64,000 nt of DNA, from contig WFMF01000415.1 in assembly GCA_011033025.1 (NCBI GenBank), positions 96,146 to 160,145 of the forward strand. Direction: 5' to 3'. The stretch is from Beroe forskalii (lineage: Eukaryota; Ctenophora; Nuda; Beroida; Beroidae). The notes below the pieces were generated by a model that saw nothing but the letters and a program-made list of their open reading frames with translations, ran no database searches and was not told the origin of the DNA. The stretch's first letter is position 1, and every line of letters begins with the position of its first letter. The position numbers were made by a program, and so were the translations under genes. This document shows positions 19,938 through 64,000 of the stretch, one piece after another.

Positions 19938-22900
19938 TCATCTGAATAGGGTTTCATTGTTGATGAAAACAGTCTCTGGAGGACCTTTGTAAATCTGAGA
20001 GATCTCAATGTTGTCAAGTTTCTCGACAATGTATTCGACCATGGTGTCAACGAACGACGCTTTTGGGGTGTCAGACATTGACAGTAGACTTCGTCCAGGA
20101 ACTGAAATAAAATGATCGATCAATTTTAAATAAAGATTTTTGAATACAAGGAAAGGTCATTGGTATTAATCACGGATACCCCCGAGGTCAAAATTCAAAT
20201 CCCTTATAAATTCGGCGCACCAAAAATGGAGTGCCTTGTGAATCGGACGTGTTTTTAATTGTATAAATTTTCAAATTACATGTTCATATTTGTATTGTAC
20301 AAGCATTTCTATTGTAATTCCATGCAATTATCGATGATCTAATGTCACTTGGAATCGCCACGTCTTTGTTTTTGTGCGCAGGAAATTTTCCAAAAATAGC
20401 GATTCCGCGAATCGGATCAGAAGAAATTGCTCGCGCGTTACGCAAAGTCGGCTAACCAGGCCGAAGCAGTAGACCTTACGACCCTTGCCACACTGCCACA
20501 TTGCCACACTGCCACACTCGAGAGTGTGGCAAATATAGTGTGGCACTGTGGCAGTGTGGCAGATTTTCGAGTTCTGCCACACTATTTTACGCTTTTTGCC
20601 ACACTGCCGCATTGCCACACTCGAAATCAGTGTGGCAGCCACACTGCCACACTCCGTTATCCGACCTTACGAAGAGTGTGGCAGCCACACTACTCCAAAA
20701 AGAAGAAAATTATCTGATTGATTATTTCATTTCATAACTACGGTTAAGAGTCATCTGTTGAGATGAACTAGTGGCTGAACTTATCATCCTATGGCGGGCT
20801 AACTACCCCTTGCCTGATGTTAACAGAGCATGTGCTTCAGTAATCAGTTGGTTCCTGCCGACTTTGGTAAGTGGTAACCAACCTTTGATTGAGAATGCAA
20901 GATAATTATAGAGTCAATTTGTAATAAATTTAAGTTTCATACAAATTACATAACAATTTACAATTGCATTTACAACACCTGACAATCACGTGTGAATTGT
21001 GATCCTAAACCAACACTACAGAGTAGAGTTCATTCACGTTCCATGATGGCACAGCTTACCAAATATCAAATGATTGATCCGATAGAATCTTACATAGTTC
21101 ATATCATTATTGCGGTATGACAACAACAACAAATTAAGTAGAAGCTGAAGTGCATATTCACGTTGTCAAATCCTAATTCAATAAACCCGCCTATTGCAAT
21201 ATAAATTTAGTTACTACTCTTCAGATTACAGGATAGCTGAATTACATGCAACTAGCAAGCACCACGTTTGTCTGTACCGTGTACGATTAACTTCCGAGTA
21301 CATAATATATTGTTTCTTGTTTAAGGATGATGATAATTATTCAAGGTTGGCACTTGGTGGGCTAAAAGATGAAACTTCGTAGGCACTATACGTCAACATA
21401 CTTGAATAGCCAGGGAAACATAAATACCGAGACGCGGTATTGATTAAAACAGATTAAGCAATACTTCAATATTGCTATTCAATCATTAATTATCATTAAT
21501 CATTGATATAATTTGTTTCACCTCTCTTTTCAAATCTAATAAGTCATTACAATTACGCTACGTAATTTCATCAAAAGTAACATGTACGGTAATAAATCGA
21601 ATCATATTATGTGGCAGTCATGACTCGTAAGGTCAACATTGCCACACTATCTCATTAGGCGTGCTGACCTTACAGCGAGTGTGGCAGTGTGGTATTAAAA
21701 GGTTGCCACACAGTGTGGCAATGCGGCAGTGTGGCAAATGAGTGTGGCAGTGTGGCAAACGAGTGTGGCAGTGTGGCTGCCACACTGCTCGTAAGGTCTA
21801 CTCGGCCGAAGTCACTAGTATAGGAAACATAACCACCAAGGTGTACCGACCAAGATTCAATGCAGCAAAATTATAGGTGAGGTATAAAAATCCAATAGTT
21901 AAAAAAGTTAGCGCTTGAAAACTGTGAATATTGAAGAATATTTCGATCAAGCATAGCACTCAAGGCTCAAGCCCTAAGAACATAAAACGACGAAAATCCA
22001 GGGGTCCACTTTCGTTTTCGACACTGAATGTATGCGCTTACCTTGCGTATTGTGACGTAGAAGTGTCAAAGGCACTTAGTGGCATGCTATTTTGTGTGAC
22101 GTAGTGGTGCCAAAGGCAGGTAGTGGTATGCTATGTAGTGTGACGTAGTGGTGTCAAAGGCACGAAGTGGCATGCTATGTAGTGTGACGTAGTGGTGTCA
22201 AAGGCAGGTAGTGGCATGCTATCAAGTGACGTAGTGGTGTCAAAGGCAGGTAGTGGCATGCTATGTAGTGTGACGTAGTGGTGTCAAAGGCATGTAGTGG
22301 TATGCTATGTAGTGTGACGTAGTGGTGTCAAAGGCAGGTAGTGGCATGCTATGTAGTGTGACGTAGTGGTGTCAAAGGCACGAAGTGGCGTGCTACCAAG
22401 TGACGACGTGACGTAGTGGTGTCAAAGGCAGGTAGTGGCATGCTATTTTGTGTGACGTAGTGGTGTCAAAGGCAGGTAGTGGTATGCTATGTAGTGTGAC
22501 GTAGTGGTGTCAAAGCCAGGTAGTGGCATGCTATGTAGTGTGACGTAGTGGTGCCAAAGGCAGGTAGTGGCATGCTATGTAGTGTGACGTAGTGGTGTCA
22601 AAGGCAGGTAGTGGAATGCTATTTTGTGTGACGTAGTGGTGTCAAAGGCAGGTAGTGGCATGCTATGTAGTGTGACGTAGTGGTGTCAAAGGCAGGTAGT
22701 GGCATGCTATGTAGTTTGACGTAGTGGTGTCAAAGGCAGGTAGTGGTATGCTATGTAGTGTGACGTAGTGGTGTCAAAGGCAGGTAGTGGCATGCTATGT
22801 AGTGTGACGTAGTGGTGTCAAAGGCACGAAGTGGCATGCTATGTAGTGTGACGTAGTGGTGTCAAAGGCAGGTAGTGGTATGCTATGTAGTGTGACGTAG

Positions 22901-25900
22901 TGGTGTCAAAGGCAGGTAGTGGCATGCTATGTAGTGTGACGTAGTGGTGTCAAAGGCAGGTAGTGGTATGCTATGTAGTGTGACGTAGTGGTGTCAAAGG
23001 CAGGTAGTGGCATGCTATGTAGTGTGACGTAGTGGTGTCAAAGGCAGGTAGTGGCACGCTATGTAGTGTGACGTAGTGGTGTCAAAGGCACGAAGTGGCG
23101 TGCTATGTAGTGTGACGTAGTGGTGTCAAAGGCAGGTAGTGGCATGCTATCAAGTGACGTAGTGGTGTCAAAGGCAGGTAGTGGCACGAAGTGGCATGCT
23201 ATCAAGTGACGTAGTGGTGTCAAAGGCATGTAGTGGTATGCTATGTAGGGTGACGAAGCGGTGAACTCTCAAAACTGTGTGCGAACCCTGTACAATGTTT
23301 ACACCATGTATCAAATCATTGGTTTTAGGCCACGAAGCGTGGCGCTCCAGAAGAATTTCTCTTGGGCAAGGAGATGTCTATGATCCCGTGTACTAAATCA
23401 TTCCATTTGAAATGGACTATAATTCGATTTGAGGATGCTAATCAGGAGTAATTTGTATGATGAATCAATATACATTCACTGATCATCAGTAGATTAATTT
23501 CGTGTAATAAGGTAATCAGTAGATACAACTGTAGCAAAACTCACTGATGTTGGAGGTAGCAGTATTGCTGACACCTTGGAAGGGTGATGCGAATAAGGGG
23601 AAGAGGAAGATGGTGAATGACAGGAAAATACCCTGAAAATAAGTTCAAGTTTCAGAAAATTATGATATGCAAAATTCGAGGGAGCAATGAAATTATGGGG
23701 GATTTTATGTGGATCATGTGAAAAATATTCAACATAATTAAATTTTAGCAGCATATTTCATTCGCTAATCTATAGTGGTTCTGCTGAACGAGGAGTGTAA
23801 ATTGGTGCCTTCATCACTCTAGAAGAAGTCAAATGCTGATCACTTCACCAAATTACTAATTCCTACACTAGTTGGCACGAGGAGTCAGCCGAGTGAAATA
23901 AGTGCAACAGTATCACTTTTGTGGCGTGATACATCAAGTGAATACTGAAAATTGTACCACCACCAGTTGTCTTCGGCTTCTAATTGCACGAGAATAATTT
24001 GCATGACAAATAATCTCATTTTGATAAATTGAGAAGGAAAATGTCATTACCATGAGGCAAGTGGTAGTCTGGGAGCCGATCGTACACTTCTTTGTCGAAC
24101 AGACAGCTTTCTTCAGCTGCTCCATTAGAGACCTGCAAAGTTGGAAGGTTCAGAGCAAGCCGAAAATAATGATTAACAGATCAATAGGTGGGCATAATAC
24201 TATATCAGTTTTGTACATTCGATCTTTAGTTCTAGTATAGGGATAATTTCTTGGACATGACAATAATAATTTCTTGGACATGAAACATAGGAATTGGGCT
24301 TTTCTCTCTTAGTGACAAGTAAACTGTGGATTTATTTTAATTTTCAGATTAATGAATAGCTTCCTCTCAGAGTACAATAATACAGGAACAACGCCCCAAA
24401 TTGAGCAGCTCTTCAACAAAACCCCAATCCTTAGCACATCGCACCTGTTTCGCTTCTGCAGTTCATCAATTGTGTTCTGCAGCTTGACATTGACTACTGT
24501 GTGCTCTTCAACTCTGAAAAGAGATCACAGTTAAAACCGTGCCCGAGGTTGACAGTGAATGTTATGATGTCATCATCAGGACATGTAGTGGTGAGATGCT
24601 GGCGTTGAAACGTCTATTTTTCTATGCGCGGGTATTCATGGATCTGCAAAGAATGCTAGAACTCGCTCTGTATCGAACTTGTGAGGAACATTAGATTAGA
24701 AAATATACATTTCATTCAGAGAAAAAAGGTTTTGAGTGCGTAATATTTGAAAATAAACATTTTATTCAGAGAAAAGGGCCTTAAGAAAGGAACATTAACT
24801 CATCAAAAAATGTACATTTTATTCAGAAAGAAAGGTTTTGAGAAAGGCTCTAGGGTAAAGCGGGGTGAAGTGGGACAATTTGAGACATATTCAGGTGCCA
24901 CAGTCACACTTTTAACGAAAAATTGATTTTTGGTTGATGATTTTAGCAATGAACCCATCCTCTTTCCATAGAATTGGTCGAAAAAATCTCAACCAATGGT
25001 TTTCATATAGAAAAAGCTGTCCATCTTTCCCGCAGCATGTCCCACTTCACCCCTCATGTGGAGGTAAAGAGGGACAGTCTCTGCAGCCCTGAGATAACCA
25101 TTTGAGAAGTTTATTCTTCATTGGACATGTACAGTTCTTTAGAATAAGTCGAATAAACCACCTTGGAACAGAGACAGATTGAGTCTAATTGGGCAAATTG
25201 GAGAATTGAATGAATTGGTCCACTTTACCCCAAAAATTATTCTTTTAGATTTAAACTTTCAAATTTCATAAAGAGGTTCATATATGGCCAAACATGGAAA
25301 ATAAGTACCTCTTTGGCAAGAATTTTGGTTTTTGGTCATTTTACAGCCTTTTTAAAAATGTCCCACTTTACCCGCGCTCACCTAAAAACTTCGTAAATTT
25401 GTTGTATGGGAACCATTTATCGATTTTTCTCCATTCCAACGGTTCAGTTGTCATCTGAGTGAAGCCCAAAATGACGAAATTTAATGAGAAAATGTAATTA
25501 CCTATAATTAGCACGTTGTGGGGGAAAGAGGGACACTAATAGTTAACAAGGATAATTATCACAATATAAGCAATAAAAGCATTTGCAATTCATAATTTGT
25601 TTACTAAAACATCCTTTATAAGTTTCTCAGGCATGAAATTTTATTTTCATTGAAAATCATGTTAATGGGGAAAGTGGGACAGTCAAGTCAGATCAAATGA
25701 AATCATGTATTCCTAAGGAAACAATTATGCTGTGGAGGTTGTTTTTCATCAAGATTTTTCACTTTGGTTGTAGTATACTTTATTTTTCTTGAAAATAGCA
25801 CTAAATGATATGGTATAATAATTTTGGGGGGAAAGTGGGACAGTTGCGCAAAAATTGTCAAAATGCAATAAAATCTATAATTTTAATTCGTGATGCTGTA

Positions 25901-28900: not shown

Positions 28901-31900
28901 ACTGATTTCACAGATAGGTTACGTGAAATAGTCTGCAGACAGCATGACACTCTCACTTCACTCGTTATCATGGTATCGTGCGTATAAGAGTTACAGATCC
29001 TAGGACTTTTTAAGGAATGTAAGAATTGTGCAGCTGAATTCTCGTGAAGTTATTTGTAAGAAATCCAGACAAAGCACAGTTCATCACTTCATCACCACAC
29101 ACCAAATGCAGACCTTCAGTTATGATTTCATTGTGCATAGAATTTCCATGATTAAGAAATCAGGAATAATATTCTTTTTATTCAATTTGGAAAACATAAA
29201 GCTGCAAATTATGCAACAATCATGCCATGCTCTCTGTCGCCTGAACGCTACAGTTTGGATTAGTAGGATTTGAAACATGAGACAAAATTTCAGAAGGATT
29301 CCCGGAAAATTGAGTAAATCATACACACTTTAATTTGTCTACTGACTACTACCGCTATAAAACAGTGTGGTGCATTATGTACACAGTGTATTTCTAAAAA
29401 ATACAGTACAGAAGTGCTGAAGTATAAGACTGAACCACCGCAATACTCTGAGTCGTAGAATTTCAGTGCATATTTTTATACGAAATAATGATTCAAGTTT
29501 CACTTATATTCCATGACCTTCGATGACAAATTGTAGCCGCCATATGGTGTAATTAAAGTTAATTAATTATTGGGCACTGCTGCAGAATTACTGCATAAAT
29601 GTTCGAATGTCTTATCAGTTCATAATCTAATAACTCGAACGACACTGCACACTCACTAATTTAAATTAATATTACCTGGTGGAAATTCCATGTAGTAATA
29701 ATATATTAGTAGGTATGTCTAAACATTCAATAACTCATTTTCTAATTAAGAAAATTATAATTTAATTTATTGAATTTAGTTATTTATGACTTTATGTCGC
29801 AAGAGGCCAACTATTTCATGTAGGTACTAACAGCTATGATCCAAGATAATATGTACATTTTCAATGCTGTTTTTCATAATTCAAAACTCACTCAAGAATG
29901 CAAATCTCTCGTATTCATATCAAATTCAATAAAGTTTTCCTTCATGGAGTCTATAGCATTACTAATGCACTACTTCATTGGGTGAGGTGTTTATTTCTTC
30001 CTCTAGAGTTCCATGAGCACCAGCAACTGACAACCCATCGCCTGACCTATCCTGACCAATCACAACACAGTAGGCGACCAATCAGCGCCCGGTAAAGGAA
30101 CCTCGTGACCCCCACTGTCTCGTGATTGGTGTATTACAGGTGCTGTGGAGGGAGTGGTGGAGAGGACGCGTGACCTCACAGAGATGTGTCGGTGTAGTGA
30201 ATAGATCGGTCACTGCCCCTTGTATACTAATGCTACACACAAAGTACACAACATACACGGCCAAGTTTACATACAAGGTAACAAATGTTCATTGGCGTTC
30301 TTTGAATAGACAAGATGAAAGAGGGATCGTAAATTGTGATGCAAAGAGTGGAGTAATGCTGATTGCTTTGGAAAATCATAGTATTATCTCAATTTAAATT
30401 TTTACTATCATATTTTTGTATTTCCAGCTTTGAGAAATATTCAGGTTTCAGAGGCTCAAAGAAACATTATTGAAAGTAACATTATGTATTTAGTAGAATT
30501 AATCTTACTCAAGAGTAAGTAACAGGTTATGACGACACAATTAGATTCAACAAGCTTCCAGTCTTCTTTGTCAAATTCTATGCTTGCTACACCTCTCTTT
30601 CTCCATTACTTAGGAGACATTAATTCAAGCATTAACTGATGAAGCACAAAATATAGAAATTTGTTGCTGCATCTTGCAGCAGGCAAACGGCATGGTGGTT
30701 AACGTTCAAATTAGCAGCATTATTTTACGCCACATTATGGATTTATGGATGTACGGAAATCATCGTGGCACTAGGAAACCGATGTACTGTATTTTGATAT
30801 GTTTTTCATCTACCAATGCACCATTATAGATAAAACCTTGGATTGAGACAAAACATCACTGCGTACTACGTAACCACTACTTATTACAAGAATATGGAAT
30901 TATTAAGTCGTAGTTAAGTCTAAATTAAATTTAAGCCCCCACAAAACTCATAACTAGCACTGTCAATAATGATTTGCAGTACAATCAGTAGATTCTTAGA
31001 TCTTCATAATCATTGAAATAACTCACCTTCGTCAGCACCACATTGAATGGAATGTTGACTCCTTCCTCCTCCAGCATTTTCCTTTCCTCTTCTGTTATGT
31101 CCCGACCTTTCAACTGGAACAAGGAAAGCAGATAATTTCAGGATACTACCGGGTGGGCCAAAAAGAACGTTGCAAAAGTAACGCGCTGTAACTTTGGTTG
31201 TGTTTTGAGTTTCTTGATGAAATTTTAGGATGTCATAGGTATAGGCTGTAAGTTTTTGCACCAAAAATTTGGAGTGTCTAGCACAAAAAATGTCCGAGTT
31301 ATCAACAAAAAACCGGTTTTTCGGCTATATTTCAATATTCGAGAGTCAATAACTCGGCTTGTGTTTGGAGTTTCTTGACCAAATTTTAGGAGGTCGTAGG
31401 TATAGGCTATAAGTGTTTGCAACATAAATTTGAAGTCTTTAGCTCAAAAAATGTTTCAGTTATCAACAAAAAGCGGGTTTTTTGCCCCTATCTCTGTTTC
31501 CTTGCCCATATCTCTGTTTCCGGGACTCAAAAATGTTAGCAACTCCAGGGTCATATTGGTCAGATGTTGCCCGAAATATCCTGAAAGTTTCATCAAGATT
31601 GCACGAAAAACCTCGGAGATATGCGCTTTTTTGTAACGCAAAAAAGTGTACATACGCAAGCGTGCATAGTTTTAACTTCCTCAAAGACACAGTAATTACG
31701 CGCTATACACTTTTTTGGGTTACAAAAAGGTGCATATCTCCGAGGTTTTTCGAGCAATCTTGATGAAACTTTCAGGATATTTCGGGTAACATCTGACCAA
31801 TATGACCCTGGAGTTGCTAACATTTTTGAGTCCCGGAAACAGAGATATGGGCAAGGAAACAGAGATAGGGGCAAAAAATCCGCTTTTTGTTGATAACTGA

Positions 31901-33805
31901 AACATTTTTTGAGCTAGAGACTTCCAATTTATGTTGCAAACACTTATAGCCTATACCTACGACCTCCTAAAATTTGGTCAAGAAACTCCAAACACAAGCC
32001 GAGTTATTGACTCTCAAATATTGAAATATGACCGAAAAAACGGTTTTTTGTTGATAACTCGGACATTTATTGAGCTAGACACTTTAAATTTTTGGAGCAA
32101 AAACTTACAGCCAATATCTATGACATCCCAAAATTTCATTAAGAAACTCAAAACACAACCAAAGTTACAGCACGTTACTTTTGTAACGTTCTTTTTGGCC
32201 CACCCGGTATTATAACACAAATGATATCATAACACATGTACACATAGCTGATGCAGAGTCTTAACTTTTGTTTCCGTGACTCGTGGTACCATATCAAATA
32301 TCAATAAATCAAGGAACTAAGTTTAGGGGAAAGGCTGAAGTAGGTCACAATTGTTTCATGGAATATCATCATGCGACATGCTATCCAATCAATGGACTGT
32401 AGGCATATGTATCCTTAATTGTAAATTCTAGTTTTCTAGTTCTATCCAACTCAAACTGCCACACCGAATATCGTCTGTGTTAATGCGGCTTCCTCTGAGG
32501 GCCACTCTTGTAGCTGGGGTGCTATCGTACATTCCAGAGCGCTTTGGAATGTTAACCATAACATCATTGTCACAACCTAAAACACATAAAATTTACCCAT
32601 CAAAGTAAAAGTAATAAGCATGAATGGAATAAATTGCATGGATTAAACTTAGTATTATGAACCAATGAAATACATCATCTTTTAAATGGGTGTAAACAAC
32701 AATGAAATTGCCAAATCCCAAAGATGAGTTGGATTAAATTACTTTACAAAACTCACGGGTTCTGTTGGCAGTTGGTTTGTTGAGGAATATGTCCACATTG
32801 ATACCCTCATCACAGACACTGGGCTTTTCATCATCAGAAACTCCATTGGAGTACCTGTCTGATCCAGACGAGGCAGGACTCCCACCATCGCTCAGCAGTT
32901 CCTGACAAGAATCAATATTTGCAAATCATTGTTGTCATTTTGTCACAACAGAACGATCACCAGGATTGTTGATTGTTTCCCTGTATGAGAAAATTTAAGG
33001 ATCAAAAAAAATTATAAGATTTCATACTGTTATTTCAAAATTTGACACACATTTGGCTCAAGATATTGAAGTTTAAACGAGATAACTGATACAAGAGAAT
33101 TGTAATCAGAAGCTTTCGAAAATCATGTGATTATTGTCATCAGCTGAGAGAGAAGGATGGAACAGTGTTTAAATATGAGTGATTGAGTGGTTTCAAAGGT
33201 GGCTAGTGAATATGAATGAAATTGAAAAAATGTTGATGCTCTCAAAATTCTTACATTTTTGACAGGTGGGTCATCACCATCTGGATCAAAGTCCCAAAGG
33301 TCATGCTTCAGGTTACTCTGAACTTCTATTTCCTTCTGAAATTGGCAGAATAATTGCTTACACATATTGTACATAAGTACATAATGAGCTTTGAGAGAAC
33401 CTTAAATACATTTTTACCCAAGCAATTAATGCATCTATGTAATATCACAATGAAATCTGAATCATAATTGCTAAAGCATTGAAAAGAATTGATATGTTAA
33501 GACTTTGGTGTAATGGCTACAAAATACAAATTACTAGTTTTAAGACATTCAATTGTTTTAATAATTTAACTTCATTAAATCCTATCCATTATATTGAGGT
33601 AGCTAATACTGAATCTGTCTAATATCATAGCTGGATAAATTTTAGTGAAGAATTTCAGGACAAGTTGACAATAACAAACCACAGAAAAGGTTGATGTGTC
33701 ATCCAGTGGAAGTTGATCTAAAAAGAAGTCCAACTCTGTGCCAGGCATTGGTAGCTCTGATGATATCACATCACCGAAAAGGTGATCAATTACACTGTCA
33801 GACAT
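19938..33805 (-). CDS. CREB3L: CREB3-like ER-membrane bZIP transcription factor, copy A
   Basis: Exons in order of transcription: 33680-33805, 33255-33335, 32757-32901, about 32465-32576, 31027-31113, 28540-28646, 24445-24513, 24051-24132, 23545-23632, 19938-20101. They give an acidic N-terminus (start [12 protein letters not shown]), a Ser/Asp-rich part, the pre-bZIP segment [18 protein letters not shown], the basic region [21 protein letters not shown] with the N-x7-R signature, a leucine zipper, then QTTTCLM joined to the hydrophobic span [18 protein letters not shown], and a luminal tail with [12 protein letters not shown]3 proteins sit in the ER membrane; S1P (RxxL sites) and S2P release the N-terminal half to the nucleus, where it raises secretory-pathway genes. 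GRSLL is a fitting S1P site about 15 residues after the membrane span. All junctions keep frame except exon 4 to 5, where I found no clean phase-0 donor; a small exon may be missing. Confidence 0.9.
20469..21803. mobile_element. Element with GCCACACTG-rich ends, only in copy A
   Basis: AGTAGACCTTACGA at the left and its reverse complement at the right bound a 1.3-kb block. Next to each end is a run of CCACACTGCCACAC (20490-20690) and its complement (21640-21785). The middle has no coding sequence. At the same place the other arm has a different 3-kb insertion (about 60225-63190), so the border of the block is inferred from that comparison. Confidence 0.65.
22040..23265 (-). repeat. 44-bp minisatellite in the last intron of CREB3-like copy A, about 27 units
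   Basis: The unit is TGTGACGTAGTGGTGTCAAA followed by GGCAGGTAGTGG and CATGCTATGTAG. Nearly every unit keeps TGACGTAG, which contains the ACGT core of CRE-type bZIP sites. The same array is present in the other arm at 59075-59985, with fewer and more varied units, so it predates the duplication. Confidence 0.95.
24853..26457. mobile_element. 1605-bp TA-flanked DNA transposon, only in copy A
   Basis: The ends are GGGTAAAGCGGGGTGAAGTG and the complement of CCACCCCGTTTTACCC-type sequence, flanked by TA on both sides. The matching spot in the other arm (57367-57368) is intact with a single TA, so this is a clean insertion. Inside, a GTCCCACTTTACCCC-like phrase recurs about 17 times in both orientations. 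No transposase frame is present; it is a non-autonomous element. TA duplication fits the Tc1/mariner group but does not prove it. Confidence 0.88.
26558..28078. mobile_element. 1521-bp TTAA-flanked piggyBac-like element, only in copy A
   Basis: The terminal inverted repeats are 17 bp, AGGGATACTGAAGTTTT, flanked on both sides by TTAA, the target of piggyBac transposases. The other arm lacks it and reads TTATTAA around 57267-57273. Inside are only short open frames, so it would need a transposase from elsewhere. Subterminal GTGATGACGT / ACGTCATCAC segments are also inverted. Confidence 0.85.
28647..31026. other. Intron 5 of CREB3-like copy A
   Basis: The left part (to about 29330) is shared with the other arm; the rest is single-copy and A/T-rich. 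I see no exon, RNA gene or transposon in 29331-31026. Confidence 0.5.
31149..32207. mobile_element. 1059-bp fold-back element with 500-bp arms
   Basis: Two arms of roughly 500 bases (31149-31650 and 31705-32207) are near-perfect inverted copies with a spacer of about 55 bases. The ends are CCGGGTGGGCCAAAAAGAAC, flanked by TA on both sides. It lies in the intron between exons 4 and 5 of CREB3-like copy A. Open frames of 60-94 codons mirror each other across the arms and are not genes. Its transcript would form a very long hairpin. Confidence 0.9.
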
Positions 33806-50901: not shown

Positions 50902-51300
50902 TTATGGTTGCACCACATATTCACATAACAAATTCACGCCGTCAATTACAACTTTGTTCAGGATTTTACTTGACCCAAATATAGTAATTTGAGTCTTGGG
51001 TTCATTAAGCTGTAGATAAAACTTAGACATCCATTTTCTGATAGCATCAAAGCAGTCATTTATCTGATTTGTCAATACATCTAGTTGTTCTGTTGGACGA
51101 AATTTTTTGGTAACCTGATGATCATCAGCATAGCCAAAAATACTGAAGCCAAGTCTATTAACACACAAGTAGATTGATCGAATATAAATGTTGAATAGGA
51201 CTGGACCTAGTACTGAGCCCTGTGGAACTCCAAACTTGATAATGATAGTTTCAGAAGTGACTGAGCCAAGTCTAATTCTTTGTGCATTTGGTTATTTACC
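50902..51300 (-). mobile_element. LINE reverse transcriptase fragment
   Basis: The minus strand encodes IIIKFGVPQGSVLGPVLFNI and, after 17 residues, SIFGYADDHQVT: the GxPQGSxLGP and (Y/F)ADD motifs of a retrotransposon polymerase, in the right order and spacing, followed by FDAIRKWMSKFYLQLNEPKT. Only about 130 codons survive; the element is dead. It may belong to the same family as the tail at 37678-38280. Confidence 0.85.
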
Positions 51301-52298: not shown

Positions 52299-52596
52299 GG
52301 GGTCATGGACCATAAAGGACATCTGCAAAATTTCAGCCTTTTTAGACCCTTCCTTGAGCTAGCTCTCGGTTGTCCAGAAACCCCTTCTTCCCCTCAGACG
52401 TCTGCATTTTTCTTGAAAATCTATTAGGGTCATCATTTTTGGGCCAGGAATTTCACGATTTTATTGTGAAAAACTCATCAAATTGACCAAAATTTTACAC
52501 ACACACTGCAGACATCCACATTTGGCCAAACACCCTCTCCCCCAATAATATGTCCGCAAACATCCCCCTTATTGGGGGCATCCTTTATGGATGGCC
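52299..52596. mobile_element. Diverged MITE (CCATCCATAAAGGAC family) directly upstream of the ALKBH2-like gene
   Basis: CCATAAAGGACATCTGCAAA at the left and CATCCTTTATGGATGGCC at the right are the ends of the same element seen at 14635 and 15528, here older and in reverse orientation inside. It stops 33 bases before the start codon of the next gene. Confidence 0.8.
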
Positions 52597-52629
52597 TTGT
52601 ATATGTCTATCTCATATAATTCATGTAGG

Positions 52630-53313
52630 ATGAAACGAAAAGCACAAACTACTCTTGATAGCTTTTTCGACAGTGAAAGATCTTCTTGTAAATATACTAA
52701 AACTTCTGTTAAGTGGCAAACTATTTCTCGAGATGGATTAGATATTCGCTATGCAGTCATATTTTCCACTTCCTTGTGTAGTAGATACTTTGCAGACCTT
52801 GAAAACGAAATTGAATACTTAACTGGTGATTTTTCAAAGATCCAAGTTTTTGGAAAATGGCATGATATTCCTCGAAAGCAATCTGCATATGGAGATGAAG
52901 GGATTAAATATAAATATAGTGGCCTAACTATTTCTGCAAAACCATGGACAAAGACATTAAATTTGATCAAAGATCATATTGAAAGCTTAACTTCAGTGGC
53001 CTATAATTTTGTCTTAATCAATAGATATGCTGATGGAAATGATAAAATGGGTTATCATAAGGATGACGAGAAGGAATTAGATATGTCAGTGCCCATTGCA
53101 AGCTTTTCACTTGGGGCATCAAGAGATTTTATTTTCAAATATCATGATAAAGATGCTGGGATTACGAATGAGGCCATTTCTCTATGTGATGGTATGTTGC
53201 TACTCATGGAAAAGGATACCAATAAATACTGGTATCATGGTATCCCACCTCGTAAGAACTGCCATGAGCCTCGAATAAATTTGACTTTCAGAAAAATTTT
53301 ACCTCTGTTGTGA
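52630..53313 (+). CDS. ALKBH2: ALKBH2-type 2-oxoglutarate/Fe(II) DNA demethylase with PIP box
   Basis: A single exon of 227 codons. ALKBH2 removes 1-methyladenine and 3-methylcytosine from double-stranded DNA. The iron ligands are H143, D145 and H203, and R215 and R221 fit the 2-oxoglutarate site. Family stretches are PRKQSAYGDEGIKYKYSGLT, YNFVLINRYADG, YHKDDEKEL, IASFSLGASRDFIF, YWYHGIPPRK and PRINLTFRKIL. Residues 6-13 are QTTLDSFF, an exact Q-x2-L-x2-F-F PCNA-binding box. I start at 52630 because it places this box at the N-terminus; the in-frame ATG at 52591 lies in the MITE end. The length is close to human ALKBH2 (261). It has no intron, and a retrocopy cannot be excluded. Confidence 0.93.
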   Translation: MKRKAQTTLDSFFDSERSSCKYTKTSVKWQTISRDGLDIRYAVIFSTSLCSRYFADLENEIEYLTGDFSKIQVFGKWHDIPRKQSAYGDEGIKYKYSGLTISAKPWTKTLNLIKDHIESLTSVAYNFVLINRYADGNDKMGYHKDDEKELDMSVPIASFSLGASRDFIFKYHDKDAGITNEAISLCDGMLLLMEKDTNKYWYHGIPPRKNCHEPRINLTFRKILPLL

Positions 53314-53329
53314 AATAGCAAAGGAACAC

Positions 53330-54900
53330 AGCGAAAATTAGTATCCATTAGTTACCATTAGTATCCGTGGTAACTGAGTGGATACTGGGTGGATACTATG
53401 GTGGATACTAAATGTCAGATTTAGTATCCACGGATACTAATGGATACAGTAGTCTATTTTTTAATAAATAGTATCCACCGTGGATACTAAATTAGTATCC
53501 ACTAGTTACCATTAGTTACCATCAGTTACCATTTAGTATCCACCCAGTTTCCACGGATACTAAAAATTGCCGTTAGTTACCATTTAGTATCCATTAGTAT
53601 CCACTGACGAATTAGTATCCATCAGTTACCACAAAACGGCAAAAAATAATTTTAAGAGTCCATAATTCGAGCCATGGATTATTTTTTACAGTGCCAGTGG
53701 TAACTAACACCTTTCTGTGGATACTAAATTCGATTAAAAACACAGTTAAATTTTAGTATCCACCAAAAGTGATATATACCTTAAAATGACTTTAGCTGTG
53801 GACAAAAAAATACTTGGGTTACCTAAAATCAGCTAGCCCCAAAAAGATATATTATTGTTCATGATACATTTATTACTTTTATTATGCCTCAAAAAGCACC
53901 AATTTTGAACATTTTAGTATCCACACAGTTGCCATTAGTATCCACTAAGTTACCATTGTACCAAGTTACCATTAGTATCCACTCAGTTACCATTAGTATC
54001 CACTCAGTTACCATTAGTATCCACCCAGTTACCATTAGTATCCACCCAGTTACCATTAGTATCCACCCAGTTACCATTAGTATCCACCCAGTTACCATTA
54101 GTATCCACCCAGTTACCATTAGTATCCACCCAGTTACCATTAGTATCCACCCAGTTACCATTAGTATCCACCGAGTTACCATTAGTATCCACCCAGTTAC
54201 CATTAGTATCCACCCAGTTACCATTAGTATCCACCCAGTTACCATTAGTATCCACCCAGTTACCATTAGTATCCACCCAGTTACCATTAGTATCCACCCA
54301 GTTACCATTAGTATCGTACCCAGTTACCATTAGTATCCACCCAGTTACCATTAGTATCCACCCAGTTACCATTAGTATCCACCCAGTTACCATTAGTATC
54401 CACCCAGTTACCATTAGTATCCACCCAGTTACCATTAGTATCCACCCAGTTACCATTAGTATCCACCCAGTTACCATTAGTATCCACCCAGTTACCATTA
54501 GTATCCACCCAGTTACCATTAGTATCCACCCAGTTACCATTAGTATCCACCCAGTTACCATTAGTATCCAACCAGTTACCATTAGTATCCACCCAGTTAC
54601 CATTAGTATCCACCCAGTTACCATTAGTATCCACCCAGTTACCATTAGTATCCACCCAGTTACCATTAGTATCCACCCAGTTACCATTAGTATCCACCCA
54701 GTTACCATTAGTATCCACCCAGTGACCATTAGTATCCACCTAGTTACCATTAGTATCCACCCAGTTACCATTAGTATCCACACAGTTACCATTAGTATCC
54801 ACCCAGTTACCATTAGTATCCACCCAGTTACCATTAGTATCCACCCAGCTACCATTAGTATCCACCCAGTTACCATTAGTATGCACGCAGTTACCCTGAT
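53330..54900 (+). repeat. 21-bp satellite, about 46 regular units, with scrambled copies before it
   Basis: From 53925 to 54895 the unit CAGTTACCATTAGTATCCACC repeats about 46 times, with one longer unit at 54305-54327. From 53340 to 53770 related GGTAACT and GTATCCAC phrases occur in both orientations at irregular spacing. Since 21 is divisible by three, long open frames (for example seven-residue repeats) appear on both strands and are not genes. The array starts within 20-30 bases of the ALKBH2-like stop codon. Confidence 0.95.
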
Positions 54901-55084
54901 GTCACGTGATAATGACATCACGAGACGTATTACGTAGCATATCACATGACCTCTAGTTCTATCCAGTGCGGATTATATCCAGTGCTGATTATATCCAATG
55001 CCGATTTTATCCAGTGCTGTGTTAACCATTAATATCATTATAGTACATGCGCGGCTTTGTCAGGTTGATTATTCATGTTGAAAT

Positions 55085-55700
55085 TATTTAGGTTTAGGGT
55101 CAGGATTAAGGTTAGGGCCATATTTAGGTTTAGGATACAGAAAAATTTACCTTTAGGTCTGTGACGTCACTCAGCCAGAGTTATATGGGACACATACCAA
55201 ATATTCCCGCCCTGGCCAGGGCGGTAACCCCCCGCGGTAAAAAGAAAACTGGCCAGGGGTATAAGTTATAGATTTGAGTGTCACAGGGTGATATAATATG
55301 TAGTTACATAACGAGCAACAGTGAAGTAACATGATTTATGCCTCGAGCGAAGCGAGTGGCATAAATTGCATTATTCACCGAAGCCGAAGGCTGAGTTGAA
55401 TAATGATTTGTTTTCATCGAGGGCGCAGCCCGAGTTGAAAACAATTTGCTACTTCGCTGTTGGGAGTTATGTAACGATATTATTTACCAAGTTTTTCAAA
55501 CGCAAGAAAACATTTTCTTCACTCTCAGCATATAAATACACCACCAAAACCGTTGGACGGTTGGTCTAGTAACCCCCCGCTGGTTTGGATGTGATCAGCC
55601 CATTTTGTCTCTTTTCAGGTTCCGTTGTCACATCCAAACCCGCGGGGGGTTACTAGACCAACCGTCCAACGGTTTTGGTGGTGATATCTTGACAGATGTA
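55085..55700. repeat. MITE remnant and strong hairpin at the border of the right arm
   Basis: 55085-55198 is the right half of the MITE seen at 50254-50507, in reverse. At 55539-55595 and 55629-55683 two arms of about 55 bases are near-perfect inverted copies (CACCACCAAAACCGTTGGAC and its complement). In between, 55325-55460 has CGAGCGAAGCGAG, GAAGCCGAAGGC and GAGGGCGCAGCCC, small mirror phrases. Confidence 0.75.
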
Positions 55701-56857
55701 TGTAGTTTGAACCCATGTTACTTGCCCAAAGGCAGTTTGGACCCACGTAACTTGCCCACACGTAGTCGGAACCCTCGTTACAAGCCCACACGCAAGTCTA
55801 ACCCACATAAATCACCCTGAGGAAGTCCAAAACTAAGTTATTCTAACTTGGAATTACTAGAATTGATATATGTCTTAATTTCTACAAAGCGTCCGTGTGT
55901 ACTCACGTGCTGAAATATAGCAACCAGATCTAATTTCACGTGCATTAGTCGAATTTGAACTCATTTCAACGTAACCAAGTCGAAAATCCCGTGTAAATAT
56001 CAATTTCTTCAAATCTCCTAATAATCGTATTTCAACTGCATTTAATTTGCAGCTTTATGTTGTCCGAATTGAATAAAAAGAATATTATTCCTGAGTTCTT
56101 AATCATGGAAATTCTATGCACAATGAAATCATAACCGAACCTGCATTTTGTGTGTGGTAATGAAGTAATGAAGTAATGAACTGTAATAGTTTGAAGTTTT
56201 ACAATAATGATGAACTGTAATTAATTCACGACATTTCCTTAAAAAGTCCTAGCAACTGTAACTCTTATACGCACGATACCATGATAACGAGTGAAGTGAA
56301 AGTGTCATGCTGTCTGCAGACTATTTCACGTAACCTATCTGTGAAATCAGCGCACGAATTAACTGACATTCGATACACAGTGAGATGGTTTCATCAGACC
56401 CGCGTATATTTTGGGTTATGATTTCACATGCCTCAGCTCGTGTCTGAACACTGTGTCACTGGAAGAATGAGCTCTGCAAAATGTAGAACTTCTCGACTTC
56501 CAGGGGTTGTGCTGACGGCACTTAACTCCCCCTGCTTCAGAACGAGGAACGAGCTCTGAAGAGAGTGAGACGGAAGATAAAGAACAAGATATCCGCTGCG
56601 GAGAGCAGGAAGAGGAGGAAGGAGTACATCGGGGGGCTCGAGAGAAGGTAGTACCCCCTCCCCCGGATTAGAGTGTGATAAGTGTTGATATCACACCCCT
56701 TCAAACTTGTCAGTGGCGCGAACAAAAACGTTAATGATGAGCGATGAAAACTGAAATGTCGAATGATAACGAAAACAACAAACTGATGGATCGTGTTTTA
56801 TCTAGAATAGTAGAATTATCACACTCGGCTAACCCTCGTGTGATGCTTATCCATAAG

Positions 56858-57017
56858 GGAGCCGTCACATATTACGACATTACGTCATCACTCGACCCGG
56901 AGGAGGGGGTTTGAGGTTTGCTGACGTCAGCATGGGGGAGGGGGTCAGCAAATGATGACAGACGGGGGGGGGGTTGAAAATGAGCAAAAAAATGATGACG
57001 TAATATGTGACGGCTCC
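56858..57017. mobile_element. 160-bp MITE only in the right arm
   Basis: The ends GGAGCCGTCACATATTACG and their complement are flanked by ATAAG on both sides. The left arm has no such element at the matching place (about 28330-28350). It is distantly related to the TTACGTAATC family. Confidence 0.85.
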
Positions 57018-59074
57018 ATAAGAGGATAGTCGCTACCATGATGCTAAATCTCAAGCTTATGACTTTAAGAAATCACCTCTTCAATGTTTTCATTGCTATT
57101 GTTAAATGTAATGAAACTTATCTTCGGGAAGGATTCATGAAAACATTGTGTAGCGCGTGTAATGAAATATGCCACAAGAATACATTTCAAGAAAGCACCT
57201 CAGAATGTGATCACTGTCCCCTGCCGCATTCCAAAGAGAATATTACTACAAATTGATATGATAATTTCATTAATAAGTATGTGACTAGACTGTTGTTCAC
57301 AATCCATTCTGCGGTGTCCTTTACACAGAAATTCTTTGTATAAAGCTTAAAGCCTTATAACAATACGTAGAGCCTTTCTCAAAACCTTTCTTTCTGAATA
57401 AAAGGTACATTTTTTGATGAGTTAATATTCCTTTCTTAAGACCCTTTTCTCTGAATAAAATGTTTATTTTCAAATATTACGCACTCAAAACCTTTTCTTT
57501 TCTAAATGAAATGTATATTTTCTAATCTAATGTTCCTTTCTTAAGGCCCTTTTCTCTGAATAAAATGCTTATTTTCAAATATTACGCACTCAAAACCTTT
57601 TGTCTCTGAATGAAATGTATATTTTCTAATCTAATGTTCCTCACAAGTTCGATACAGAGCGAGTTCTAGCATTCTTTGCAGATCCATGAATACCGCGTAT
57701 AGAAAAGTAGACGTTTCAACGCCAGCATCTTACCACTTTATGCCCTGATGATGACATCATAACATTCACCGTCAACCTCGGGCACGGTTTTAACTGCGAT
57801 CTCTTTTCAGAGTTGAAGAGCACACAGTAGTCAATGTAAAGCTGCAGAACACAATTGATGAACTCCAGAAGCGAAACAGGTGCGATGTGCTAAGGATTGG
57901 GGTTTTGTTGAAGAGCTGCTCAATTTGGGGCGTTGTTCCTGTATTATTGTACTCTGAGAGGAACCTGTTCATTATTCTGGAAAAAGAAAAAACTACAGTC
58001 TACTTCTCACTAAGAGACAAAAGCCTTTAACTCCTATATTTCATGTCCAAGAAATTATCCCTATACCAGAATTAAAGATCGAATGTACAAAACTGATATA
58101 ATATTATGCCCATATTATATTGATCTATTAATCATTATTTTCGGCTTGCGCTGTACCTTCCAACTTTGCAGGTCTCTAATGGAGCAGCTGAAAAAAGCTG
58201 TCTGTTCGACAAAGAAGTGTACGATCGGCTCCCAGACTACCACTTGCCTCATGGGTATTTTCCTGTCCTTCTCAATTTATCAAAATGAGATTATTAGTCA
58301 TACAAATTATTATCGTGCAATTAGAAGCCAAGGACTGCTGGTCGTAGTAAAGTATTCGCTTGGTGTATCACGCCACAAATTTGATACTGTTGCACTTATT
58401 TCACTCGGCTGACTCCTCGTGCCTTTTATAGTGTACAGGAATTATTAATTTGGTGTAGTGATCAGCATTTGACTTCTCCTCGAGTGATGAAGATTTACAC
58501 TCCTCTAGCAGTGCCACTATGCACCGTTAGATTAGCGAATCAAATATGCTGCTCAAATTTTATCATCTTAAATATTTTTCACATGATCCACATAAAATCT
58601 TCCATAATTTCATTGCTCCCTCAAATTGTGCCCATCATAATTTTCTGAAACTTGAATTGTGCCTGTGTGCCTCAACTTAAACTTATTTTCAGGGTATTTT
58701 CCTGTCCTTCACCATCTTCCTCTTCCCCTTATTCGCATCACCCTTCCAAGGTGTCAGCAATACTGCTACCTCCAACATCAGTGAGTTTTGCTACAGTGGT
58801 ATATTTTAATCTACTGATTATTTGTGAATGTATATTGATTCATCATGCAAGTTACCCCTGACTAGCGTCCTCAAATAGAATTATAGTCCATGTCAAATGG
58901 AAGGTTTTAGTACACGGGATCATAGACATCTCCTTGCCCAAGAGAAATTCTTCTAGAGCGCCGCGCTTCTTGGCCTAAAACCAATGATTTGATACATGGT
59001 GTTAACATTGTAAACATTGTACAGGGTGTGCAATGGCCCTGTAAACATTTGGAGGGTTCACCGCTTCGTCACAC

Positions 59075-59985
59075 TAGACAACATGTCACCACATGCCTTT
59101 GACACCACTACGCACACTACATAGCATACCACTACATGCCTTTGACACCACTATGTCACCCTAGATATCATACCACTACTTGTCTTCGACACCACTAAGT
59201 CACTTGATAGCATGCCACTTCGTGCCTTTGACACCACTATGTTACACTACATAGCATACCACTACATGCCTTTGACACCACTATGTCACCCTACATAGCA
59301 TACCACTACGTGCCTTTGACACCACTACGTCACTTGATAGCATGCCACTTCGTGCCTTTGACACCACTATGTTACACTACATAGCATACCATTACATGCC
59401 TTTGACACCACTACGCACACTACATAGCATACCACTACATGCCTTTGACACCACTATGTCACTCTACATAGCATACCACTACATGCCTTTGACACCACTA
59501 TGTCACCCTACATAGCATACCACTACGTGCCTTTGACACCACTACGTCACTTGATAGCATGCCACTTCGTGCCTTTGACACCACTATGTTACACTACATA
59601 GCATACCACTACATGCCTTTGACACCACTATGTCACCCTACATAGCATACCACTACGTGCCTTTGACACCACTACGTCACTTGATAGCATGCCACTTCGT
59701 GCCTTTGACACCACTATGTTACACTACATAGCATACCACTACATGCCTTTGACACCACTACGCACACTACATAGCATACCACTACATGCCTTTGACACCA
59801 CTACGTCACTTGATAGCATGCCACTTCGTGCCTTTGACACCACTACGTCACACTACATAGCATACCACTACATGCCTTTGACACCACTATGTCACTTGAT
59901 AGCATGCCACTTCGTGCCTTTGACACCACTACGTCACGCAGAATAACATTCCACTACGTGCCTTTGACACTACTACGTCACAATA
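59075..59985 (+). repeat. 44-bp minisatellite in the last intron of CREB3-like copy B, about 20 units
   Basis: The reverse-oriented counterpart of 22040-23265: TGCCTTTGACACCACTACGT followed by CAC and ACTACATAGCATACCACTAC. Roughly half the units have TACGTCAC and half TATGTCAC or TACGCACAC, so the ACGT core is less well kept than in the left arm. Confidence 0.93.
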
Positions 59986-60224
59986 CGCACATACATTCAG
60001 TGTCGAAGCGAAAGTGGACACCTGGATTTTCGTCGTTTTATGTTCTTAGGGCTTGAGCCTTGAGGGCTATGCTTGATCAAACTGGAATAATTCTTCAATA
60101 TTCACAGTTTTCAAGCACCAACTTTGTAAACTATTGGATTTGTATACCTCACCTACTTTTGCAGCATTAAATCTTGGTCGGTACACCATGGTGTTTGTTA
60201 TATTTCCTAGGCCTAGTGGCTTCG

Positions 60225-61270
60225 GGAGAGGGACGGGGACCTACGTGTACCAAGTGTACCAAATTACGGGATTTGGTACAAGTTGACATAGCTCCCAAAC
60301 TAGCCGTCACATTTTAATGAAAATTTCCAGTTTGGTCAAGCATGACTAAAAAACATAATAACGTCAAAAAAGGGGTCTATATGCTAAATTTCAAGCTATA
60401 ACGGAACACAAGGAAATACCATTTTTCTTTTCTTTTGACGTTTTTATGTTATTTTGATCATTCTCACCCTGATTGGAAAGCTTCATTCAAATGTGACAAC
60501 TAGTTTTCGAATAACCGTTGTACCAAAATACCGTAAAATCGCTAAAATTCTCTGGGTCATGCTTAACTTAAATACAAAGTTCCTTAAAAATCTGAAGAGC
60601 AGTTTTCGAAAAGTTGTTGTACCAAAACACCTTACTTTCCGCAGTCTTCTTGGTACACTTTTGATTTATGTCTTAGATGGCTTCGGCGAGAAGGTGTTCT
60701 CGAGGTTTACAATCTTACCTTGTTAACAATCGTACCGTGTTAACGACGGTACCTTTTAAACAACGGTACCTTATTAACAACGGTACGTCATTTACAACGG
60801 TACTTAACTGGGTACCTCAACAACAACGGTTCCTAACTGGGCACCTAAATATCAACGGTACATCATGGGTACCCTAACAACAACGGTACCTTTAACAACA
60901 ACGGTACCTTAACAACAACGGTACCTTAACAACAACGGTAACTTAACAACAACGGTACCTTAACAACAACGGTAACTTAACAACAACGGTACCTTAACAA
61001 CGACGGTACCTTATTAAGAACAACAGTACCTTTAACAACAACGGTACCTTAATAACACAGTACCTTAACAGCAACGGTACCTTAACAACAACGGTACCTT
61101 AACAACAACGGCACCTTAACAACAACGGTACCTTAACAACAACGGTACCTTAACAACAGCGGTACCTTAACAACAATGGTACTTAATTTACAAAACGTTA
61201 AGCAAGACAAGTTGAACATCAAGAAAACAAATAGAACTAATGGCGAGAGGGGCAGCACACGGCATTATTA
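60225..61270. repeat. Arm-specific insertion with 17-bp GGTACC satellite
   Basis: From about 60740 to 61190, GGTACCTTAACAACAAC repeats about 20 times; each unit has the palindrome GGTACC. The part 60225-60735 is non-repetitive apart from TTGTACCAAAA phrases and shows no gene. The left arm has a different insertion at the same site. Confidence 0.8.
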
Positions 61271-62735
61271 GGGTGGTTCAAAAATCCTTTTTCTCATCAA
61301 ATCAATAGCTAAGACAATGTGGATAAGTTGCTCCAGGATATCAAGAAACACCACAAAAAATTTCAAGTCAAAATTCGATCGGGAAAAGCCGCCTCCTGGC
61401 CACGCCCTTTTTTCGGGATTTCTTATACAGGTAAAAAACCGAAAAATGGCTTTTTCGGCGTTTTACTTCCATTTATTTGTATTGGAACCATTTTCCTTTA
61501 ATATAAACCGTAGGAAGGCATTTTGTTTACTTGGGGTTTCAAAAGTTGGAGGTCGAGGTCGTCGTTGGGGGCAGAGAAGAGGGATGAGCATCTCAATCAC
61601 GACTGCAGGTAGCCAAAGAGAAGGAAGAAAGCTATCCTTTCCAGCTTCTTCTTCTTGTGGCAGGGGATGTCAGGAAAATGATGCTCCAGGAGCTTCCGTA
61701 GAAATTGAACAAAGGTGAGGGAGAAGTTGCTTCTGATTCCTTCAGCACCATCCTTCCTTGCAGAGGCTCGGGAACGTCTGACAGTGCAAGGAAGTATGGT
61801 GCTAAAGAAATCAGAAGGTACTTCTCCCTCCACCATCCTCTTCTCCCTCATCCATGTACCTAACACCTTCCTGGCTGACCCTCAATAGCCAATGAGGACA
61901 GAGAATTATTGCCTCGTAAAATGTTTACAACTCGTGAAAATGGGCGTGGTCGATATATCGGGTTGGGTGTGGTCTGACACCTTTGCAAGCCAAAATGAAC
62001 AAAGTATCGTCATACGGTTCATATTAAAGGAAAATGGTTCCAGCATGAAAAAGTGAATGTAACATGCCAAAAATGCCGATTTTCGCGATTTTGCCTGTTA
62101 AAATAGGGCGTGGTCAGAAAATCGGTTTGGGCGTGGTCGTACACTTTTGAAACCCCAAGTAAACGAAATGCCTTCCTACGGTTTATATTAAAGGAAAATG
62201 GTTCAAGCATGAAAAAGTGAAAGTAAAATGCCAAAACGCCGATTTTAGCGATTTCGCCGGTTAAAATAGGGCGTGGTCAGAAAATCGGTTTGGGCGTGGT
62301 CGTACACTTTTGAAACCCCAAATAAACGAAATGCCTTCCTACGGTTTATATTAAAGGAAAATGGTTCCAGCATGAAAAAGTGAAAGTAAAATGCCAAAAA
62401 CGCCGATTTTAGCGATTTCGCCTGTTAAAATAGGGCGTGGTCAGAAAATCGGTTTGGGCGTGGTCGTACACTTTTGAAACCCCAAGTAAACAAAATGCCT
62501 TCCTACGGTTTATATTAAAGGAAAATGGTTCCAACACAAATAAATGGAAGTAAAACGCCGAAAAAGCCATTTTTCGGTTTTTTATAAGAAATCCCGAAAA
62601 AAGGGCGTGGCCAGGAGGCGGCTTTCCCGATCAATTTTGACTTGAAATTTTTTGTGGTGTTTCTTGATATCCTGGAGCAACTTATCCACATTGTCTTCTA
62701 TTGATTTGATGAGAAAAAGGATTTTTGAACCACCC
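61271..62735. mobile_element. 1465-bp TA-flanked element with about 280-bp inverted ends
   Basis: The ends are GGGTGGTTCAAAAATCCTTT and its complement, flanked by TA, and the inverted match continues for about 280 bases on each side. Near the right, a segment of about 165 bases (GGGCGTGGTCAGAAAATCGG and so on) is repeated three to four times (61945-62520). A smaller inverted pair surrounds 61610-61850. No transposase is encoded; open frames follow the repeats. Confidence 0.85.
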
Positions 62736-62754
62736 TAGGCATTATATATGGTGA

Positions 62755-63010
62755 CTGACACCACTCCATCATCAATGACGAACGACGACGTATGCACATT
62801 CCACATACCAACGCAATGACGTTGACACCACTCAGTACCAAATCAAGCATGACGAATAGCGTGCGCATACCAACTGTATGACGTTGACACCACTCTGCAC
62901 CATATTAAGCGTGACGAATAGCTACGTTTACACATTCCACATACCAATCCTATGACGTTGACACCACTTTAGGCACCCAATGGAGCATGACGAAAAATGT
63001 TACGTGCACA
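62755..63010 (+). repeat. Short tandem repeat of about 65 bp
   Basis: The phrase ATGACGTTGACACCACT with AAGC(A/G)TGACGAATAG occurs three to four times. It is distantly like the 44-bp satellite (TTGACACCACTACGTCA) nearby and could share its origin. Confidence 0.6.
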
Positions 63011-64000
63011 TACCAAGTTGATCAGATTGAGTGCACACAAATTTGTTACGATAAAAAGAGCCTCTTTTCTTTCTCTCTCATTTCATGCTTCGATCATTCA
63101 CTCATAACCAGCGTAATTTATGAATGCACAAAAATTTTAGGTACAACTCCTGTAAAATCATGACAATATTGGGCTAGAAAATCTACTGGCTTTGGCCTGG
63201 TTCACCGACTTTGCGTAACGCGCGAGCAATTTCTTTTGATCCGATTCGCGGAATCGCTATTTTTGGAAAATTTCCTGCGCACAAAAACAAAGACGTGGCG
63301 ATTCCAAGTGACATTAGATCATCGATAATTGCATGGAATTACAATAGAAATGCTTGTACAATACAAATATGAACATGTAGTTTGGAAATTCATACAGTTG
63401 AAAACACGTACAATTACAATGTACTCCATTTTTGGTGCCCTTAAATATATTAGGGATTTGAATTTTGACCTCCGAAGGCGAAGGGGTCAGACAACGTCTG
63501 ACAAGGGGTATCCGTGATTAATACCAGTTACCTTTCCTTGTATTCAAAAATCTTTATTTAAAATTGATCGATCATTTTATTTCAGTTCCTGGACGAAGTC
63601 TACTGTCAATGTCTGACACCCCAAAAGCTTCGTTCGTTGACACCATGGTCGATTACATTGTCGAGAAACTTGACAACATTGAGATTTCTCAGATTTACAA
63701 AGGTCCTCCAGAGACTGTTTTCATCAACAATGAAACCCTATTCAGATGAGCAGTGTATCATCTCATCTGAGATGAACATTTGGACAATATTTTCAATTTC
63801 GAGATTTCGCCATTTTTAATCATTTTGCTCATTGACATGATAATCCAATATAGTGCAAAAACCGTTCAAGAATACACATATGAAGTTGTTTCAGCTTATT
63901 TCATGATTTCGAAAGATTATTTTAAGTTATTCTGTAAAGCATGTAAAAACTAGATTATCTTTACTATTTTAATCCGCTCACTGGTTTTTACTTTCCCAAA

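What the first reader, a model, noticed from the sequence alone, without database searches (positions are those of the whole stretch)
58172..58271. Exon 8 of copy B runs directly into the first 18 nt of exon 9 in the genome
At 58254-58271 copy B carries GGTATTTTCCTGTCCTTC, identical to the start of its own exon 9 (58693), exactly at the exon 8 border. Copy A has the normal donor there (GTAATGACATTTTCC). Eight of thirteen bases differ, while the surrounding sequence differs by only a few percent, and the length is unchanged. The exact exon-exon border suggests copying from spliced RNA or cDNA during repair. The result destroys the splice donor.
Basis: partly seen in the sequence, partly recalled or inferred. 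Interest (0 to 1): 0.8.

Follow-up and report, generated by a model that had tools for sequence, protein, structure and literature searches.

The report
Exon 9 start copied over donor
In one of two copies of an animal CREB3-like gene, the first bases of an intron have been overwritten with the first bases of the next exon, which removes the splice site; this is most likely a small DNA-repair copying accident, but it may be a trace of repair templated by spliced RNA.

Summary
In copy B, exon 8 (58172-58253) is followed by GGTATTTTCCTGTCCTTC, identical to the start of its own exon 9 (58693-58710). Copy A (minus strand, border 24051/24050) has a donor there. Length is unchanged; 8 of 18 bases differ, all in positions 2-12.

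Two details soften the reading. The match extends one base left into the acceptor G (19 nt). Its right end, TCCTTC, already stands in copy A's intron in register: a 6-nt microhomology. One templated repair event copying copy B's own exon 9 fits best. The exact exon-exon border favours a spliced RNA or cDNA template over a random genomic switch (1 of 110 simple switches; 1 of 1358 products), but in my judgement base rates favour ordinary microhomology repair. I cannot separate the two. A consensus artefact from RNA reads is less likely but open.

The gene is CREB3/OASIS-like. Exons 7-10 look constrained (9 differences, 8 synonymous). Copy B has no detectable exon 6, ends at the contig end and starts 20 nt after a high-copy repeat, so its placement, and whether it is paralogue or misjoined allele, is uncertain.

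The parts
58172..58253 (+). Copy B exon 8 (82 nt), ends ...CTCATG
   Evidence: alignment with copy A and reading frame
58254..58271 (+). Tract identical to start of exon 9; replaces the donor; altered bases confined to 58255-58265
58266..58271 (+). TCCTTC, shared in register by copy A intron 8 and copy B exon 9: the right-hand microhomology
58693..58780 (+). Copy B exon 9 (88 nt), the probable template sequence; acceptor TTTTCAG intact
56541..56647 (+). Copy B exon 7 (basic region)
57811..57879 (+). Copy B exon between 7 and 8 (zipper), called ex8a here
63586..63749 (+). Copy B last exon with stop codon
24051..24132 (-). Copy A exon 8; normal donor GTAATG from 24050 downwards
23545..23632 (-). 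Copy A exon 9 (TCA where copy B has TCC)
31027..31107 (-). Copy A exon 6 (start of the exon approximate); the only exon-6 match found in the assembly
56043..63996 (+). Copy B, inverted relative to copy A (29211-19688); contig ends at 64000
55684..56022 (.). High-copy repeat 20 nt left of copy B
   Evidence: 38 other places listed with the full 339 nt at 96-100% (40 of 1239 candidates scored, so a lower bound)

Best explanation
One microhomology-primed templated repair event in intron 8 of copy B, with copy B's own exon 9 as the template sequence. A break or stalled end just inside intron 8 used TCCTTC (6 nt, present in both places) and GG (at the donor and at the exon 9 start) to copy 11-19 nt of exon 9 from the chromosome, and then rejoined the intron. 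The product replaced the donor GTAATG with GGTATT. Shown: the sequences, the altered span, the microhomologies, and that copy A keeps a normal donor. Inferred: that copy A is ancestral, that one event occurred, that a polymerase-theta-like or template-switch pathway was used, and that the template was chromosomal DNA. Expected result: exon 8 either reads through (79 codons from exon 8 to a stop) or splices one base later at GG|GTATTT with a frameshift. Either way the normal membrane segment and tail would be lost.
For: Exact 19-nt match 439 nt away in direct orientation. Altered bases 2-12 are flanked by shared bases on both sides. TCCTTC occurs on the plus strand within 1.5 kb of copy B exon 9 only in exon 9 and at the tract, and the only G run in the 40 nt before it in exon 9 is the GGG at the exon start. 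The observed product is among those reachable with a 2-nt primer and a 6-nt return. Short local template switches in great apes have a median copied length of 12 nt, and 5.5% of the gold-standard events are length-neutral (PMC7954356, passages seen). Flanking templates for end-joining insertions, in direct and reverse-complement orientation, are common in Drosophila (PMC2895639, passages seen).
Against: Nothing in a genomic-template model requires the exact border. Of 110 left switches with 2 or more nt of microhomology only 1 gives it, of 408 with 1 or more nt only 1, and of 27 with 3 or more nt none (template range -60 to +12 around the exon 9 start). In a wider enumeration over 4 kb and both strands it is 1 of 1358 products with a 6-nt return, 47 of them length-neutral (the part of that output for 3-nt primers was cut and not seen). 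The left microhomology is only 2 nt; overlaid by eye (TCATGGTA on TCAGGGTA), the two splice sites would have given one G fewer. No outgroup proves polarity.
Confidence: 0.42

Rival explanations
1. RNA- or cDNA-templated repair. The right-hand broken end (3' end GAAGGA) anneals to UCCUUC in exon 9 of the gene's own spliced transcript, is extended through the start of exon 9 and across the junction into exon 8, and then pairs with chromosomal exon 8. It is an aborted intron loss.
For: Predicts the exact exon 8-exon 9 border with no left microhomology and needs only the 6-nt right anchor; a random genomic switch gives that border in 1 of 110 or 1 of 1358 cases. The 6-nt anchor exists with copy B's exon 9 (TCC) and not with copy A's (TCA). 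RNA-templated break repair with precise whole-intron deletion is reported in human cells (PMC12065846, passages seen).
Against: The known signature is loss of the whole intron; here the intron remains. No transcript data. Genomic exon 9 carries the same sequence 439 nt away. The one copy B exon 9 base that differs from copy A lies inside the tract, which would also fit DNA-DNA exchange.
Confidence: 0.33
3. Separate small mutations (+G, -6, +5 nt) or chance, or the copy B state is ancestral.
For: A gapped alignment drawn by eye needs only three indels.
Against: 0.02 matches expected by chance at up to 3 mismatches in the window; it would be a coincidence that three events give 19 nt of exon 9. 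A copy-B-like ancestor would lack this donor.
Confidence: 0.05

Closest known systems
Templated insertions/delins of polymerase-theta end joining (PMC2895639, passages seen)
   Same: short copied stretch, microhomology at the ends, nearby direct-orientation template
   Different: template 439 nt away and the copy joins exon to exon exactly
Short-range template-switch mutation clusters (PMC7954356, passages seen)
   Same: dense cluster of substitutions explained by one local copy, similar length
   Different: in the passages seen the copied fragment is a reverse complement; this one is direct
RNA-templated break repair / whole intron deletion (PMC12065846, passages seen)
   Same: exact exon-exon junction in genomic DNA
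   Different: the intron is not lost; 11-19 nt were copied and the intron continues
CREB3/OASIS family bZIP membrane transcription factor genes
   Same: bZIP plus following hydrophobic segment; PDB chain 6iak_A matches residues 2-125 of the 140-aa query (that this chain is a CREB3 is recalled)
   Different: copy B lacks detectable exon 6 and the exon 8 donor

Membership tests
Microhomology-mediated templated delins | inserted bases match a nearby template | tested here: met
   19-nt exact match 439 nt away
Microhomology-mediated templated delins | microhomology at both switch points | tested here: met
   GG on the left (2 nt), TCCTTC on the right (6 nt)
Microhomology-mediated templated delins | dependence on polymerase theta or replication switching | not testable with these tools
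   needs genetics
RNA/cDNA-templated repair | exact exon-exon junction in genomic DNA | tested here: met
   ATG|GGTATT, ambiguous by one base on the template side
RNA/cDNA-templated repair | intron removed between the joined exons | tested here: not met
   the rest of intron 8 remains
RNA/cDNA-templated repair | RNA was the template | not testable with these tools
   exon 9 DNA and RNA have the same letters
CREB3 family | bZIP domain | tested here: met
   PF00170, E 2e-13
CREB3 family | membrane segment after the zipper | tested here: inconclusive
   the [14 protein letters not shown] stretch aligns with a hydrophobic stretch of 6iak_A; no membrane predictor was run
CREB3 family | site-1 protease cleavage | not tested
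   recalled feature; not examined

The most novel reading that the evidence does not exclude
Direct genomic trace of germline repair templated by the gene's own spliced transcript, aborted after 11-19 nt, so that exon 8 joins exon 9 while the intron stays: a half-finished intron loss in an animal.
Probability: 0.3. Interest if true: 0.72.

Novelty: new member of a known kind. Interest (0 to 1): 0.36.

Why it matters
If RNA was the template, short exon-exon tracts at donors would be a searchable signature of RNA-templated repair that whole-intron deletion scans miss, and would make the mechanism of intron loss testable. If genomic DNA was the template, it is one more splice-site mutation made by local templated repair, and a warning that an exact exon-exon border alone does not prove RNA.

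Tried and rejected
Homology of the two splice-site neighbourhoods as the sole cause: the local alignment score (11) is reached by 15% of shuffles and by 3.5% of 115 other windows of the region, so it is not special.

My argument that GG plus TCCTTC forces the border: true only if the return at TCCTTC is given; the open enumeration gave 1358 products with a 6-nt return, so the border is not forced.

Other templated clusters between the copies: of 8 dense ungapped difference windows, 7 besides the tract border gaps or poor alignment. The template search (14 or more nt, 5 or more differing columns) listed 5 rows for copy A and 10 for copy B. By eye, those other than the tract (2 rows) are tandem or inverted repeats, edges of the aligned blocks or misalignments. 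A 16-nt tandem-repeat row (56165) overlaps the first of the 7 windows and a 19-nt row (59009) the last two.

Recurrence: no further tract at evident splice borders, by eye, in 280,494 bases for the donor side. The mirror (acceptor-side) scan was run only on the window and L009 and gave one 12-nt hit in a repeat-rich stretch, against one 13-nt hit in the controls. This is too little to exclude rare recurrence.

Exons of copy B upstream: no second exon 6 in the window, in the 10 kb upstream of it, or in the assembly at E 0.001; a diverged short exon could be missed.

Retained haplotypes in general: two test stretches had no second copy longer than about 250 nt among the candidates scored (40 of 597 and 40 of 1199).

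Literature: seven searches whose listings were capped at 10-12 of 73, 24, 59, 222, 42, 55 and 23 papers. No title or abstract start shown described a partial exon-exon tract at a donor. I read passages of four papers only.

Full report
Observation. Copy B (plus strand) carries ATG|GGTATTTTCCTGTCCTTC at the end of exon 8. The 18-mer recurs exactly at the start of exon 9, and the only other place in the window within 3 mismatches is exon 9 of copy A; 0.02 matches were expected. Copy A (minus strand) has ATG|GTAATGACATTTTCCTTC at the same aligned place. Eight of 18 bases differ, in positions 2-12, without length change. In the four aligned blocks 245 of 2816 non-coding bases differ (8.7%, the tract's 8 included), and 9 of 512 exon bases (my exon limits there were off by one base at four exon ends). 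Of 2971 ungapped 11-column windows, 8 non-overlapping ones with 6 or more substitutions were listed; one is the tract and the other 7 border gaps or poorly aligned stretches.

The gene. Exons 6-10 of copy A translate to a bZIP protein (PF00170, E 2e-13) that matches PDB chain 6iak_A from before the bZIP into a hydrophobic segment. The listing calls that chain 'Uncharacterized protein'; that it is a CREB3 structure is my recollection. Exon 9 encodes the hydrophobic stretch [18 protein letters not shown], so loss of the exon 8 donor should remove it. Read-through of copy B would give 79 codons from exon 8 to a stop; copy A's intron is also open, for 65 codons, so the open frame is nothing special. 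A donor one base later (GG|GTATTT) would frameshift. In copy A the joined exons 8, 9 and 10 read through to the stop of the last exon (all).

Constraint. Of the 9 exon differences, 8 are synonymous and 1 is E to D (codons read by eye from the positions). One or no non-synonymous change among 9 has P 0.0001 if both copies were neutral, and 0.004 if only copy B were neutral by my rough 0.6 expectation. Exons differ less than non-coding sequence (Fisher P 6e-10). Against a simple reading, conservation is patchy: more than 80 nt of intron after the exon before exon 8 are also identical between the copies. Still, exons 7-10 of copy B, including those beyond the lost donor, were probably functional for most of the divergence, so the donor loss is recent, polymorphic or not real.

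Context of copy B. The inverted copies run 29211-19688 and 56043-63996. The contig ends at window base 64000. Exon 6 was found once in the assembly, in copy A. The 339 nt just left of copy B (55684-56022) have 38 further listed places with the full length at 96-100% identity, with 40 of 1239 candidates scored. The stretch 53314-55088 is also high-copy, with best matches at 95-98% (40 of 7690 candidates scored). Thus copy B hangs on the contig by high-copy repeats. It may be a true 5'-truncated duplicate, or an allele or paralogue misjoined there. Two other test stretches showed no second copy longer than about 250 nt among the candidates scored, so unpurged alleles do not look general. This does not change the local tract, but it limits what can be said about gene function.

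Mechanism. The tract must be templated from exon 9. Copy B's own exon 9 (TCC) fits the full 18 nt, while copy A's exon 9 (TCA) fits only 14 from the border. The right end TCCTTC is already in copy A's intron in register. In copy A intron 8, 3 of 400 18-mers, the first included, match exon 9's start at 10 of 18. Such a return microhomology is expected of repair synthesis and not of a consensus artefact. On the left, donor and exon start share GG. If the return is at TCCTTC, the only G run within 40 nt before it in the template is the exon start. But in open enumeration the spliced border is 1 of 110 left switches with 2 or more nt of microhomology, 1 of 408 with 1 or more nt and 0 of 27 with 3 or more nt, and 1 of 1358 products with a 6-nt return. 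In-register return is 1 of 39, 1 of 11, 1 of 4 and 1 of 2 sites at 3, 4, 5 and 6 nt. So the border is real evidence for a spliced template, set against the lower prior I give to RNA-templated repair.

An RNA route needs only one microhomology. The right end's 3' strand ends in GAAGGA, pairs with UCCUUC of exon 9 mRNA, is extended through the junction into exon 8, and anneals to exon 8 DNA. This is inference. Human cells can use spliced RNA in break repair, leaving whole intron deletions (PMC12065846, passages), and transcripts guide end joining (PMC11390984, passages). Genomic local templating is well known (PMC2895639, passages; PMC7954356, passages). I give genomic templating 0.42, RNA/cDNA 0.33, artefact 0.12, separate mutations or reversed polarity 0.05, and the remainder to readings I have not thought of.

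Recurrence. A scan of 280,494 bases (window, 10 kb upstream, three 50-kb samples and 18 short loci; held loci L008, L015 and those overlapping the window's contig were left out) for 12 or more nt repeated exactly after an acceptor gave 6 hits against 7 in controls. By eye only this one sits at evident splice borders; I built no gene models for the others. The sample is about 0.13% of a 216-Mb genome and says only that such tracts are not common.

Noticed in passing
53314-55088 and 55684-56022: High-copy repeats, the first containing a 21-bp tandem array and with best matches at 95-98% identity on other contigs; they lie just left of copy B.
   Followed up: partly
52549-53313: ORF with a 2OG-Fe(II) oxygenase (AlkB-like) domain ending exactly where the high-copy repeat begins; a reverse-transcriptase fragment lies at 50902-51291. 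Possibly a composite mobile element carrying an AlkB-like gene.
   Followed up: no
17597-19429: Uninterrupted 610-codon flavin amine oxidase ORF; about 1.4 kb (window about 18102-19528) has a 96% copy on another contig (C247:60833-62262), and the rest of the 2.7-kb query was not matched there.
   Followed up: partly
31143-32213: 1.07-kb stretch that matches its own reverse complement at 92%, directly upstream of copy A exon 6.
   Followed up: no
58707: The single exon 9 difference between the copies (TCA in A, TCC in B) lies inside the shared tract and lengthens it from 14 to 18 nt; it may be chance or part of the same exchange.
   Followed up: no
22047-23263 and 59059-59986: 44-bp tandem arrays in the same intron of both copies.
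   Followed up: no
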